Assembly (NCBI RefSeq): GCF_000165485.1
Contig: NC_014623.1
Coordinates: 2,437,501 to 2,501,500 of the forward strand
Length of the DNA: 64,000 nt
Reading direction: 5' to 3'
From: Stigmatella aurantiaca DW4/3-1
GTDB taxonomy: Bacteria; Myxococcota; Myxococcia; Myxococcales; Myxococcaceae
Part shown: positions 1-52,357 of the stretch, in pieces
Position numbering within the stretch: the stretch's first letter is position 1
Layout: every line of letters begins with the position of its first letter
Program-made: the position numbers and the translations under genes
Notes under the pieces: generated by a model
Seen by the model: only the letters and a program-made list of their open reading frames with translations
The model's database searches: none
What the model was told of the DNA's origin: nothing

Positions 1-756
1 CGTGCCCGACGTGCCCGACGGTGCCCGGCCTGGACGCTCACCGCGAGCCCCAGCGCTCACCACGAGGCCCGCGTCCGACGGTGCCCGCCGGGGCGCTCAC
101 CGCGAGCCCCAGCACCACGAGGCCCGCGTCCGACGTGCCCGGCCTGGAAGCGCACCGCGAGGCCCCAGCGCTCACCACGAGGCGCGCGTCGACGTGCCCG
201 CCTGGACGCGCACCACGAGGCCCCAGCGCTCACCACGAGCGGCGCGTCGACACGGCCCTCGCTGCGCGGCGTCGGCGCGAATCCCTGCCCTTTGGCGCGC
301 GGCGTCCGTGCCCTTTCGGTTGCCCTTTGGCGCGCGGCGTCCGTGCCCTTTCGGCTGCCCTTTGGCGCGCGGCATCGACCGGCGCGAAGTCCCCGCCCTC
401 GGGTGCGCGGCGTTGGCGCGAAGTCACCCGCCCGCTCGCTGATCTGAAAGGCTGCCCGCCTCGTATACCTGGGCCAGCGCCAACGGCTGCCGCGCTCGCC
501 CGCCCGCCCCACGGCGTTTTTCCGGCGTTGCTCCCGGCGTTTTTCCGGCGTTGCTCCCGGCGTTGCTCCCGGCGTTGCTCCCGGCGTTTTACCGGGGCCA
601 CGTCCGGCGTTTACCGGCGCCACCACCGGCGCCACCACCGGCGCCACCCCGGCGCCACTACTGCGTCCCATCGTGGCGGCGTTTGCACCGCACGCGGGCC
701 ACGTCGACGCGCGCCTCGTGGGCGCGCTTGGGGGCCTCGTGGCGAGTGCCTAGGCT
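1..756. repeat. GC-rich minisatellite region, no credible gene
   Basis: Several short-period tandem arrays lie side by side. Positions 1-250 repeat a unit built on GCTCACCACGAGGCCC. Positions 280-420 repeat a unit around TGCCCTTTGGCGCGCGGCG. Positions 507-600 repeat GGCGTTGCTCCC about six times, and 600-660 repeat CACCGGCGC. All long open frames here are arginine/proline-rich consequences of the repeats and lack ribosome-binding sites, so I call no gene. The last array, read on the other strand, resembles the GGTGGCGCCGG repeats near 14.05 and 31.9 kb, suggesting the same kind of element-associated non-coding DNA in opposite orientation. Confidence 0.75.
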
Positions 757-6070: not shown

Positions 6071-6549
6071 AGACGGCCTCGGACGTATACGCAATGACTA
6101 ATCCTGCATTGTGTAGCCTGATAATTTGCTCATTCCTTGAGGGACACGAGGCTTCTAGTGGGCGTGGCGCAGAATTTCCACTGTTGTTTCTCCCCATTCC
6201 TCTTGTCCTGTCGGAGACCTCGCGCAACACTTTTTCCAAGACCAACAGTCGCACCGGTTTTTTTACCTGGATACAACGCAACCCTGAAATCCTGATTGAT
6301 TTAGCAGCGCGCATCAACAGGACCGCTACGTACTCCCGCGAGGGGTTGCTCTTCGGGGCGCGCTATCGCATGCTTGCTGGTGATAACGAGGGAGGAATGA
6401 GAACGGCGAAAAAAATTGTCTCCTCTCAACTTCAATCTATACATGCAGACTTGCGTTCATACTTCAATATCGCACGCCGATTTGGTTATTGGGTTGCCGA
6501 AGTGGGCTCGACACGCATGATTCTACATTCCCTCGGGCTAACGCCATGA
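6067..6549 (+). CDS. ABC-3C system middle component
   Basis: A 160-residue protein in an ATGA overlap with the effector gene. It opens with YAMTNPALCSLIICSFLEGH and contains LFLPIPLVLSETSRNTF and GLLFGARYRMLA, matching the small middle component that links effector and ATPase in ABC-three-component systems. Its C-terminal RFGYWVAEVGSTRMILHSLG is typical of this family. No enzyme motif is expected or seen. It is inferred to be a structural adaptor. Its end overlaps the ATPase start by four bases, so all three genes form one coupled transcript. Length is normal. Confidence 0.82.
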   Translation: MKTASDVYAMTNPALCSLIICSFLEGHEASSGRGAEFPLLFLPIPLVLSETSRNTFSKTNSRTGFFTWIQRNPEILIDLAARINRTATYSREGLLFGARYRMLAGDNEGGMRTAKKIVSSQLQSIHADLRSYFNIARRFGYWVAEVGSTRMILHSLGLTP

Positions 6550-48865: not shown

Positions 48866-49093
48866 AACGGGTCACAAGCTGGCCAAAGAGACCAGGGGCT
48901 TCGACTGGAAGAAGCTGCCCAAGCAGCTGAGAGTGGAAGAAGCCGGGCGGGTTGACTGGAGCCTTGCTGAAAGCCTGAGCGGCCCAGCCGCGCCCCAGCC
49001 ACCAAGAGGCCTCAGGCTTGGGACAGAGGCAAGCGGAACAAGGCCATCCCCATGGCGGCTGGAGTAGGCTGCCCCTTCTTCCAGGAGGGGATC

Positions 49094-50128
49094 ATGGGCT
49101 CTGCGTTGCTGAACGGATGGCGAGCGGCGTTGCTCGGCTCGGTGCTGTTTCTTGCTGCGGGGTGTAAGGAGGATTCTCCAGACCCAGGGGACGGGCAGGA
49201 CCTGGATCCAGAGAGCACGGATGTTTGCCGCAAGCCGGCCTTTCCGCCGGATGCGCCCTGGAACAAGGACATCTCCAGCGCCCCACTCGATGCCCAGTCC
49301 GGGGCGGTGATCTCCTCGCTCCAAGCACAGGGCTGGGGAAACGGGCGCTTCCAGATCGACTTCTCCTTCGAAGTGCTTTGCACCAGCGATGCGCCGCTCC
49401 GGACGTTCCAGAAGACAGACGACTTCTATGCCGGGGAATGCGACGACACCGCCGTGCCCGTACCCGTGGGAGGCGCCCTCGAAGGGGAAGCGGGCTATCA
49501 GTGCACGGGCGATGGGGATTGCCATTTGATTGTGATTCACAAGCCCACGCGCAAGCTCTACGAGCAGTGGAGGGTCGACATCTCGGGGAACACCTACCGG
49601 GGCGGGTGCCTGGCCGTATGGGATCTCAGCCGGGTCTATCCGCCACAAGGGCGCGGGGAGCAGTGCACGAGCGCGGACGCGGCGGGGCTGCCCATCACAC
49701 CGCTGCTCTTCGATGCCGATGAGGTCGCGGCCGGAGAAATCAAACATGCTATCCGGTTCATTCTGCCCAATAGCCGGATCCGCAACGCGACGTACGTCCG
49801 TCCCGCGACCCATGCAACGCGGGCCGCGAGTGGTGGCACGAACGCGCCCCCCTATGGTGTGCGCCTGCGTCTGAGGTCGAACTTTCCCGTGGAAGGCTTG
49901 CCCAGCGCTGGTGCCCGGGTGGTGGCCCGGGCCCTCCAGAAGTATGGGATGATTCTGGCCGACGGCGGCAACATCGCCCTGACGGCCCAGAGCGATCGCT
50001 CCACGGCGGCCAAGTGGGCTGGCTTGTTGGGCCCGCTGGATCTGAGAACGATCCAGCCCTCGGACTTCGAGATGGTGGAGGCGGGTTCCCGCTTCACCTG
50101 GATGGGTGACTGTGTGCGGAGTCCTTAG
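49094..50128 (+). CDS. secreted lipoprotein, uncharacterised family
   Basis: A 344-residue lipoprotein. The start MGSALLNGW was chosen because the signal RAALLGSVLFLAAGC (lipobox LAAGC) directly follows. The mature protein includes NKDISSAPLDAQSGAVISSL near the N-terminus, KPTRKLYEQWRVD, and LPITPLLFDADEVAAGEIKH followed by AIRFILPNSRIRNATYVRPA. I have seen this block order in secreted bacterial proteins of unknown function, sometimes attached to carbohydrate-related domains. QKYGMILADGGNIALTAQSD near the C-terminus is also conserved in that group. No catalytic assignment is made. Confidence 0.75.
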   Translation: MGSALLNGWRAALLGSVLFLAAGCKEDSPDPGDGQDLDPESTDVCRKPAFPPDAPWNKDISSAPLDAQSGAVISSLQAQGWGNGRFQIDFSFEVLCTSDAPLRTFQKTDDFYAGECDDTAVPVPVGGALEGEAGYQCTGDGDCHLIVIHKPTRKLYEQWRVDISGNTYRGGCLAVWDLSRVYPPQGRGEQCTSADAAGLPITPLLFDADEVAAGEIKHAIRFILPNSRIRNATYVRPATHATRAASGGTNAPPYGVRLRLRSNFPVEGLPSAGARVVARALQKYGMILADGGNIALTAQSDRSTAAKWAGLLGPLDLRTIQPSDFEMVEAGSRFTWMGDCVRSP

Positions 50129-50176
50129 AAAATGTGAAACTCGAAATGACGAGGATCCGACGCGTCGGTTCTGACA

Positions 50177-50208
50177 TTGACGTGTCAACGCGAACATTGA
50201 CGTGTCAA
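50177..50208. promoter_or_regulatory. two phased palindromes upstream of the amidohydrolase gene
   Basis: The perfect 12-base palindrome TTGACGTGTCAA occurs at 50177-50188 and again at 50197-50208, exactly 20 bases apart, about two helical turns. The surrounding ACATTGACGTGTCAA is also repeated. The layout suits a dimeric repressor or activator binding on one face of the DNA. It is 125-165 bases before the amidohydrolase start and just after the preceding stop. No candidate regulator gene is adjacent. Confidence 0.6.
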
Positions 50209-50332
50209 TCAAAAAATGCATCGGCAGGGCATCGCCCCGTTGCACATGGGTTCGTCAAAACGATAAAGAACGATGCAGAAGCGAGAATCACTTGTATGGG
50301 TTGAAGTGACCTTTCCCTCATTCCAGAACGTT

Positions 50333-52357
50333 ATGAACCGATCCCTGCGCCAAGAACCGCTGCTCGCCTGTCATATGCTGTCACGTGCCTTTGTATCTCT
50401 CGCCGCGCTCACCCTCCTGGCTTCCTGCACGACCAGGGGAGGAATTGGTGCGGGCGGGGATGGCACGGTCCTCTTTGTCGGCAAGATTCTCACGATGGAT
50501 GACCAGGGAACGATCGCCGAGGCCGTCTCCGTGGATAAGCGGGGCCGAATCTTGAAGGTGGGCACCGAGGAGGAAGTGAGGAAGGGATTAAACGCGGAGG
50601 TGGAGCCCATCCGCCTGGCCGAGGGGCAGGTTCTGATGCCGGGGTTCATCGATCCGCACATCCACCTGCTGCCGACGCTGTTGCAGAGCCTGCCGGTGAC
50701 GCACAATCTAGCGCCCTGCCTACCGCCCCCCTACAAGGCGGCGAACTCCGAGGGCTGCCAGAACTACGTGCTGCCCGCGCTCAAGTCGATGCGACCGCCC
50801 TCTACCGGCAAACTCGAGGGCGCGGAGTTCATCGTGGGAATGAACCTGGACCCGTCGCGGCAGGCATTGGGCTCGGATGAATGCAGCAAAGACAAGATCA
50901 CGCCCTTCATGGACAGGCCGATGCAATATCTTGAGGACTGCGTGAACAGGGACCGTCCGGTTCTTGTCGTGGATCAGTCTGGCCACCTGGCCTACGTGAA
51001 CCAGAAGGCGTTCGAGGTCGTCTGCATCGAGATGACAGGGAAAAAGGAGTGCGATGCCCCCAGGTCGGTCACGGACAATGGTGGGGAATGGGTCAAAGAC
51101 AGCATCACCCAAAAATACACAGGGTTGCTCCGTGAGTCTCCTGCCTTCGAGCCGTTCTTCCAGGCGATGGGAAAGGGGCTCCTGCTGGGGCTGATGCACA
51201 CGAACCCGGTCCAATTTGTCAAAGAATCCGAAAAGGACATCCTTCAGACCATTCAAGCGCTGCGCGCAGCCGGGCTCACGACCGTTGCGGATGGAGGACT
51301 GGCGAGCAAGGGACAGATCGATGCTGTGAAGTTCCTGGCGGAGAGGCCGAATTTCCCGCTGCGAATCACGGGCCTCGTGCGGGACAACGCTGCGTCAGGC
51401 GACGCCAAGCATCCGCCGATCCTGCCTTCGGGACCGGACTGCGACCCAACCCAGGATACCCAGTGCAAGCTGCCGATGTGGCTGGGCGTTGGCGGCATCA
51501 AGCTCTGGGTAGACGGGTCGACGCAAGGCTGCACCGCACAGCTCGCGCCCCCCTACAAGTACCAGGATCCCGGACACTGCGCTCAGGCGGGGGAGGGCCG
51601 GTCCGACTTCACCACGGATCAAATCGTCACTCGATTGAAGGATCTCTGGAATACGGGGGCGTGGCGGTTCCAACTGCATGCCAATGGCAACGGCGCGAAC
51701 CAGACGGCCATCGATGCGTTCACGCAGCTCCAGATGCAGAAAGTGAACCCTCACCGGCTGCTGTTCATCCACAACACGGTGGGAGCGGAGACGATCTCCG
51801 AGCAGCTCGGCAGCATGCGCAAGGGCACCCTCTTTGTGGGCGAGAAGAAGGTGCCTGCCCTGGACGCGCGGGTGACGCACCTCATCGGCCATGTGGCGTA
51901 CTGGGGCAATGCCCTCGAGGGGATGCTGGGAAAAGAGGGCGCGCAGAACATCGACCCGATAGCGTTTGATCGCCAGTATGAAGTCCCGTTCTCGTTCCAC
52001 AGCGACTCGATGGTGACCCCCTCGCGCCCGCTCTGGTTCGTGGAGCAGGCCGTCACGCGTCGCACGTGGACGTATCCCGATTTCACGAAGACCCCCAATC
52101 CCGTCCCCGTGCTCGGGGCCCGTCATGTGGCGACAGTCGAAGAGGCGCTGCGCGCGATCACGGTGGAACCGGCCCGTCAGCACGAACTCGACGCGTGGCT
52201 GGGCAGCATCGAGGAGGGAAAGGTGGCGGACTTCGTCGTGCTGGGGGCCAATCCTCTCGACTACGACCCCTCCAAGGGAGGAGACCCCACGAAGCTCAGC
52301 CAGATTCCGGTGATTCAGACGTACCTGAACGGCCAGCCCACCGTTGGCAGCCACTGA
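50333..52357 (+). CDS. lipoprotein amidohydrolase (amidohydrolase 3/YtcJ-like)
   Basis: A 674-residue metal-dependent hydrolase. Signal MLSRAFVSLAALTLLASC has a lipobox, so the enzyme is on the envelope; the start could also be the ATG at 50375. FVGKILTMDDQGTIAEAVSV and GQVLMPGFIDPHIHL (metal-binding His-x-His) are the usual start of amidohydrolase 3 proteins. Later blocks are GGIKLWVDGSTQGCTA, FQLHANGNGANQTAIDAF (metal His) and FSFHSDSMVTPSRPLW. The C-terminal ARQHELDAWLGSIEEGKVAD closes the beta-sandwich. Insertions with several Cys-containing loops (LAPCLPPPYKAANSEGCQN) are extra compared with YtcJ and could form disulphides outside the cytoplasm. The substrate is unknown. Confidence 0.9.
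   Translation: MNRSLRQEPLLACHMLSRAFVSLAALTLLASCTTRGGIGAGGDGTVLFVGKILTMDDQGTIAEAVSVDKRGRILKVGTEEEVRKGLNAEVEPIRLAEGQVLMPGFIDPHIHLLPTLLQSLPVTHNLAPCLPPPYKAANSEGCQNYVLPALKSMRPPSTGKLEGAEFIVGMNLDPSRQALGSDECSKDKITPFMDRPMQYLEDCVNRDRPVLVVDQSGHLAYVNQKAFEVVCIEMTGKKECDAPRSVTDNGGEWVKDSITQKYTGLLRESPAFEPFFQAMGKGLLLGLMHTNPVQFVKESEKDILQTIQALRAAGLTTVADGGLASKGQIDAVKFLAERPNFPLRITGLVRDNAASGDAKHPPILPSGPDCDPTQDTQCKLPMWLGVGGIKLWVDGSTQGCTAQLAPPYKYQDPGHCAQAGEGRSDFTTDQIVTRLKDLWNTGAWRFQLHANGNGANQTAIDAFTQLQMQKVNPHRLLFIHNTVGAETISEQLGSMRKGTLFVGEKKVPALDARVTHLIGHVAYWGNALEGMLGKEGAQNIDPIAFDRQYEVPFSFHSDSMVTPSRPLWFVEQAVTRRTWTYPDFTKTPNPVPVLGARHVATVEEALRAITVEPARQHELDAWLGSIEEGKVADFVVLGANPLDYDPSKGGDPTKLSQIPVIQTYLNGQPTVGSH

What the first reader, a model, noticed from the sequence alone, without database searches (positions are those of the whole stretch)
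50177..50208. Two perfect 12-base palindromes spaced 20 bases apart
TTGACGTGTCAA occurs twice with identical flanks, on the same helical face, upstream of a large lipoprotein amidohydrolase. No other copies were noticed in the window and no regulator lies next to it, so a distant regulator must read it.
Basis: seen in the sequence. Interest (0 to 1): 0.5.

Follow-up and report, generated by a model that had tools for sequence, protein, structure and literature searches.

The report
Myxobacterial enhancer array upstream of amidohydrolase
The repeated short sequence is part of a widely shared genetic switch in predatory soil bacteria, probably read by one family of activator proteins, and the same switch sits before genes for secreted enzymes, a terpene-making enzyme and a needle-like injection machine.

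Summary
The repeat is real but is not a perfect palindrome: TTGAC-GT-GTCAA has five symmetric bases on each side of GT. A third, truly palindromic site (CCGACGCGTCGG, 50157-50168) lies exactly 20 bp upstream, so the array has three sites. The exact 12-mer occurs 6 times in 10.26 Mb, at four loci. Pairs of the wider site TGACRYGTCA occur in 64 of 96 genomes of the family; the reversed control gives 0 in all 96. Spacing is quantised by the DNA helix (of 75 pairs, 61 at 20-22 bp, 6 at 11-12, 5 at 31-32). Of 113 arrays, 87 have a sigma54-type promoter within 240 bp (score >=10: 89/222 flank segments against 3/216 controls), phased to the array. One subfamily of sigma54 enhancer-binding proteins (EBPs) carries such sites just behind its own gene: 32 of 37 members, 0 of 10 sister paralogues, 0 of 28 other EBPs. 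Best reading: an operator/enhancer for that EBP; this genome's candidate lies far away, at C1:10156349. The array is conserved at 23 of 27 amidohydrolase orthologue loci. However, the window promoter has no sigma54 motif (best score 2.9) and most orthologues show a sigma70-like -10, so how the array acts at this gene stays open.

The parts
50157..50168 (.). Third, distal site CCGACGCGTCGG, a perfect palindrome, exactly 20 bp before the first reported copy
   Evidence: GACGCGTC found as a paired site; site score 9.7; the same site is kept in the closest relative L351
50177..50188 (.). Middle site TTGACGTGTCAA
   Evidence: Sequence and counts; site score 18.3
50197..50208 (.). Proximal site TTGACGTGTCAA
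   Evidence: Sequence and counts; site score 18.3
50295..50300 (+). Possible sigma70-like -10 element TATGGG; weak and picked by eye
   Evidence: 92.5 bp from the centre of the proximal site, in the helical phase of 17 orthologues; the same hexamer stands in L361
50333..52357 (+). Amidohydrolase-family lipoprotein gene, the likely target (674 aa from the ATG at 50333; the open frame starts at 50273)
   Evidence: Pfam Amidohydro_3 E 7.3e-47 on the longer frame 50273-52357; lipobox LLASC read by eye; orthologues in 27 of 96 genomes
49052..50128 (+). Upstream gene of unknown family (358-aa frame, lipoprotein-like), transcribed towards the array
   Evidence: Open frame; no Pfam match

Best explanation
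The three sites at 50157-50208 are an operator (enhancer) array of the class TGACRYGTCA, repeated at about two helical turns. Dimers of one subfamily of AAA+ sigma54 enhancer-binding proteins, whose C-terminus holds one Fis-type HTH and a second HTH-like segment, would bind neighbouring sites on one face of the DNA, assemble, and activate transcription from a promoter placed in phase with the array. At most targets that promoter is sigma54-type. In this genome the candidate regulator is the EBP at C1:10156349-10157953, whose gene lies next to a Ser/Thr-kinase-domain gene that may signal to it. At the amidohydrolase gene the array is conserved, but the promoter looks sigma70-like or has diverged, so the last step is open there. 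Shown by computation: the array, its conservation, the quantised spacing, the phased sigma54-type elements elsewhere, and the gene association with the EBP. Inferred: binding, assembly, activation and the kinase link.
For: Pairs in 64 of 96 genomes against 0 reversed controls in 96. Spacing 20-22 in 61, 11-12 in 6, 31-32 in 5 of 75 listed pairs. Sigma54-type elements at score >=12 in 67 of 222 flanks against 0 of 216 segments 900 bp away, 2 of 222 shuffled, 2 reversed; at least one >=10 for 87 of 113 arrays. Array to -24 distance periodic, n=77, R=0.556 at 10.5 bp. EBP loci: 27 of 32 (one gene counted twice) with a site within 650 bp downstream, 0 upstream, 0 in 51.5 kb of EBP coding DNA; 5 of 20 further paralogues and 0 of 28 unrelated EBPs; V/M/E type 32 of 37, D type 0 of 10, unclassified 0 of 4. 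EBP and array presence agree in 93 of 96 genomes (counted by hand). Own EBP: Sigma54_activat and HTH_8; neighbour: Pkinase. At least 3 sites upstream at 23 of 27 amidohydrolase orthologue loci.
Against: The window has no sigma54-type element (best 2.9 downstream of the array), the injection cluster none above 5.1, and only 1 of the 23 orthologues with arrays scores >=10. 26 of 113 arrays lack one. The own V-type EBP has only degenerate sites behind its gene (10.0 and 7.7). Five of 37 V/M/E-type EBPs have no site; the residue grouping was made after seeing the data. EBP and array presence follow clades, so the 96-genome agreement is not independent evidence. Arrays come from related species. 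No binding data.
Confidence: 0.7

Rival explanations
1. At the amidohydrolase gene (and the injection cluster and CBAH gene) the same EBP or a close relative binds the array but acts on a sigma70-type promoter, as a phased activator or as a repressor.
For: 18 of 23 orthologues with arrays have a -10-like hexamer 18-60 bp before the ATG, in constant helical phase with the proximal site (R=0.80). Arrays with and without sigma54-type elements share the same site logo and spacing.
Against: The hexamers were picked by eye after looking at the sequences, and the orthologues are related. EBPs of this type are expected to work with sigma54 (established knowledge). The closest relative L351 has a sigma54-type element (11.5).
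Confidence: 0.3
2. An unrelated regulator (for example a TetR- or MarR-type dimer) reads these sites, and the EBP genes merely lie next to some of them.
For: A short inverted repeat is a common kind of site for such repressors (established knowledge). A TetR-like gene lies about 0.5 kb from the array in L124 and a LysR-like gene near L096 (named by eye). 26 of 113 arrays have no sigma54-type element.
Against: Phased sigma54-type elements at most arrays require an EBP. Sites lie behind one EBP subfamily and not behind sister paralogues or other EBPs.
Confidence: 0.15
3. The sites organise the chromosome, like those of the nucleoid protein CdbA of Myxococcus xanthus.
For: Helically phased repeats; more than one locus per genome.
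Against: Only 0-16 strict pairs per genome and strand, against more than 500 CdbA sites, whose motif is a direct repeat separated by 4 bp (PMC7156744, passages; the logo itself is not held). The arrays are tied to promoters.
Confidence: 0.02
4. A chance repeat.
For: Two-copy short repeats do arise by chance.
Against: 0 reversed controls in 96 genomes; array kept at 23 of 27 orthologue loci.
Confidence: 0.01

Closest known systems
NmpR, an NtrC-like EBP of Myxococcus xanthus (PMC11841059, passages)
   Same: Dyad-symmetric sites, two or more per promoter, upstream of a sigma54 promoter, with spacing that matters
   Different: Site GCGCA-N5-TGCGC with 14-15 bp between sites; a two-component response regulator. 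Here TGACRYGTCA at 20-22 bp from start to start
Nla28, an EBP of Myxococcus xanthus (PMC9765219 and PMC7910581, passages)
   Same: Tandem repeats upstream of sigma54 promoters; a large regulon that includes natural-product genes
   Different: Half-site CT(C/G)CG(C/G)AG and irregular spacing; another sequence code
EBPs with an FHA domain in Myxococcus xanthus (Jelsbak and others 2005; seen only as a reference entry in PMC4320627)
   Same: Myxobacterial EBPs that may answer to Ser/Thr kinases; the EBP here lies beside a kinase gene
   Different: No FHA domain was detected in the subfamily described here
CdbA, nucleoid protein of Myxococcus xanthus (PMC7156744, passages)
   Same: Helically phased repeated motif in the same bacterial group
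   Different: Ribbon-helix-helix protein, direct repeat, more than 500 sites, little effect on transcription

Membership tests
Array class TGACRYGTCA (as defined here) | At least two sites, start-to-start distance a multiple of about 10.5 bp | tested here: met
   Three sites 20 bp apart; two exact TGACRYGTCA sites, the third CGACGCGTCG
Array class TGACRYGTCA (as defined here) | Conserved upstream of orthologous genes | tested here: met
   At least 3 sites at 23 of 27 orthologue loci; 2 partial genes and 2 apparently full-length ones without
sigma54-dependent promoter with an upstream EBP enhancer | -24/-12 element downstream of the enhancer at the window locus | tested here: not met
   Best score 2.9 between the array and the ATG; 87 of 113 arrays elsewhere reach 10
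sigma54-dependent promoter with an upstream EBP enhancer | -24/-12 element downstream of the array class as a whole | tested here: met
   67 of 222 flanks against 0 of 216 controls at score >=12
sigma54-dependent promoter with an upstream EBP enhancer | An EBP binds the sites | not testable with these tools
   Only gene association:
sigma54 EBP family (candidate regulator C1:10156349) | AAA+ sigma54-interaction domain and Fis-type HTH | tested here: met
   PF00158 E 2.3e-57 and PF02954 E 6.1e-10; GAYTGA in place of GAFTGA in L146 and L270, read by eye
FHA-domain EBP | N-terminal FHA domain | tested here: not met
   No FHA match in any of 23 N-terminal domains at E<=5; no FHA structure found by profile; the model of one domain was unusable, pLDDT 34.6
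NmpR or Nla28 site | GCGCA-N5-TGCGC, or tandem CT(C/G)CG(C/G)AG | tested here: not met
   Motifs; the array sequence holds neither, compared by eye
CdbA site | Direct repeat separated by 4 bp | tested here: inconclusive
   The class is an inverted repeat in 20-22-bp steps, but the CdbA logo is in a figure that is not held

The most novel reading that the evidence does not exclude
One EBP subfamily with a double DNA-binding tail reads a single operator code across the family and works at two kinds of promoter, sigma54-type at most targets and sigma70-like at the amidohydrolase, the injection cluster and the CBAH gene, under a partner Ser/Thr kinase. A AAA+ activator serving both polymerase forms from phased arrays would be unusual.
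Probability: 0.2. Interest if true: 0.8.

Novelty: new member of a known kind. Interest (0 to 1): 0.6.

Why it matters
It turns one odd repeat into a testable regulon across a bacterial family, with a defined operator, a helical geometry and a candidate activator. Genes downstream of arrays include terpene synthases that I read as geosmin synthases (8 of 89 targets; one checked by Pfam as Terpene_syn_C_2), LodA-type oxidases (3; one checked), an arginine kinase (4; one checked), MscS-like channels (7) and trypsin-like lipoproteins (5) (unchecked names by eye), and a contractile injection cluster in this genome. In the searches made here (search listings; passages of seven papers) I saw no paper that describes this operator; the library lacks most subscription journals.

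Tried and rejected
Perfect-palindrome reading: rejected. Known M. xanthus sites (NmpR, Nla28, MrpC TGTYN8RAC) do not match. A literature search with four of the motif strings gave 38 papers; of the 30 listed none looked relevant by title, except perhaps one on alphaproteobacterial BetI that I did not open. FHA domain in the EBP: not supported; the label 'FHA-EBP' in my notes is withdrawn. Export-signal count of targets was crude (39 of 89 against 189 of 701, with different handling of start sites) and is not relied on. Hits of the pair pattern outside Myxococcota were not followed; some chance hits are expected at that scale. My note gave '21 of 23' orthologues; the count is 23 of 27 loci. In one search two apparently full-length orthologues (L357, L365) had no site, but their starts were extrapolated. 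The 113 arrays are distinct by sequence but come from related species, and they are not all arrays known: they come from L240-L319 (most listed arrays of G002, G006, G013, G020, G040, G080, G093, G096, five of G005, one each of G067 and G050), three own loci and 33 named loci. I left the Sorangium, Minicystis and non-myxobacterial loci out of that set.

Full report
OBSERVATION. TTGACGTGTCAA is present at 50177-50188 and 50197-50208. It is a 5-2-5 inverted repeat, not a perfect palindrome. A third site, CCGACGCGTCGG (50157-50168), stands exactly 20 bp further upstream and is a true palindrome. The exact 12-mer occurs 6 times in the 10,260,756-bp genome, 0 for the reversed pattern. The loose form TTGACNNGTCAA finds only those same 6 sites (1 per strand for its reversed control). 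They lie at four loci: two are exact pairs, a third is a pair with one mismatch, the fourth a single site. The species was not confirmed by a call.

OWN GENOME. The other array or site loci are: C1:1879382, between divergent operons of a contractile injection cluster (gp25, PAAR, Pvc16_N, sheath), with a third, degenerate site; C1:4216510, between two phosphoesterase-family genes; C1:9173100, a single site before a gene of the choloylglycine hydrolase family; C1:6825105; and C1:8463169, before a gene I read as lipase-like with a sigma54-type element. A one-mismatch site at 316206 lies before a long secreted-looking protein. No regulator gene lies beside the window array (read by eye).

THE CLASS. 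The pattern TGACRYGTCA-N9..13-GACRYGTC occurs in 64 of 96 genomes of the family, with 0 reversed-pattern matches in all 96. This is quantisation by the helical repeat.

PROMOTERS. For 113 distinct arrays I scored sigma54-type elements (consensus TGGCACG-N4-TTGC(T/A), PMC7910581 passage). Score >=12: 67 of 222 flanking segments, 0 of 216 segments 900 bp away, 2 of 222 shuffled, 2 of 222 reversed. Score >=10: 89, 3, 5 and 6. 26 of 113 arrays have none >=10 on either side. The distance from the nearest site to the -24 element is periodic (n=77, R=0.556 at 10.5 bp; 71 non-redundant promoters, R=0.548). Trial periods from 10.25 to 11.5 score nearly as well, so the period is not sharply fixed.

REGULATOR. 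EBP genes beside arrays turned up first in L146 (Minicystis rosea) and L270. The L270 EBP has strong matches (E below 1e-150) in 65 of 96 genomes. Against the table is 63 both, 2 EBP only (G014, G088), 1 array only (G111), 30 neither (counted by hand). This follows clades and is weak alone. The local arrangement is stronger: of 32 EBP loci (one gene counted twice) 27 have a site within 650 bp downstream, 0 upstream, and 0 sites lie in 51.5 kb of EBP coding sequence. The sites are usually followed by TGGTACGGTGYCTGCA, and in the six modules read in full by a small protein gene; most of these have a long gene of the kinase kind facing it. Twenty further paralogues gave 5 with sites; 28 other EBPs of G040 gave 0 (2 of 30 control loci had no readable EBP). 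Sorted by the residue X in the first HTH (S-[LIV]-Y-X), X = V, M or E has sites in 32 of 37, X = D in 0 of 10, unclassified 0 of 4. The grouping was made after seeing the data. Among the two own members found, one is V-type (C1:10156349) and one D-type (C1:385596); the V-type has only degenerate sites behind it (10.0 and 7.7). The search scored only 15 of 107 first-look candidates in this genome, so another member could have been missed.

THE WINDOW GENE. Orthologues of the amidohydrolase are in 27 of 96 genomes. 23 of the 27 loci, this one included, carry at least 3 sites upstream; 2 are partial genes and 2 apparently full-length ones have none. The array is therefore an old part of this gene's control region. 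Its promoter is the exception: only 1 of the 23 scores >=10 for sigma54 (L351, the closest relative, 11.5), and the window scores 2.9. 18 of the 23 have a -10-like hexamer in constant helical phase with the proximal site (R=0.80), the hexamers picked by eye. So the class is mostly sigma54-linked, while this locus may be sigma70-linked. I do not file the window promoter as sigma54-dependent.

MECHANISM. Most likely EBP dimers bind the tandem sites, assemble, and activate a phased promoter; at this gene the last step is unproven. The adjacent kinase (Pkinase plus TPR) may supply the signal; that is inference from gene order. The N-terminal domain of the EBP is unassigned.

COMPARISON. The known M. 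xanthus EBP sites of NmpR and Nla28, and the MrpC site, differ; CdbA is described as a direct repeat. The finding is a new regulon of a known kind of system, with an unexplained promoter exception at the window locus.

Noticed in passing
L012 (G000:C1:1873000-1886000), sites 6383-6437: The same array, with a third degenerate site, sits between divergent operons of a phage-tail-like contractile injection cluster; it is kept in the relative G005 (L025). No sigma54-type element above 5.1.
   Followed up: partly
L249, L254, L262, L273, L281, L294, L311, L317: Arrays with sigma54-type elements stand before terpene synthase genes that I read as geosmin synthases (the relative L128 is Terpene_syn_C_2); L281 and L294 also have one before an isopentenyl diphosphate isomerase-like gene.
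   Followed up: partly
L105, L141, L289, L299: Array and sigma54-type element before an arginine kinase gene, in Myxococcus xanthus AM003 (L141) among others.
   Followed up: partly
L378 and L391-L405: D-type sister EBPs lack the sites, but several have another sigma54-type element behind the gene, so they may read a different operator.
   Followed up: no
L086, L089, L091, L130, L146: Sorangium and Minicystis (outside the family) also have helically spaced GACRYGTC sites; in Minicystis rosea L146 the array lies between an EBP gene and a divergent gene.
   Followed up: no
L073, L077, L083, L116, L117: Five Planctomycetota contigs match the paired pattern; chance or real was not tested.
   Followed up: no
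window 35-650: Dense short direct repeats at the start of the window.
   Followed up: no
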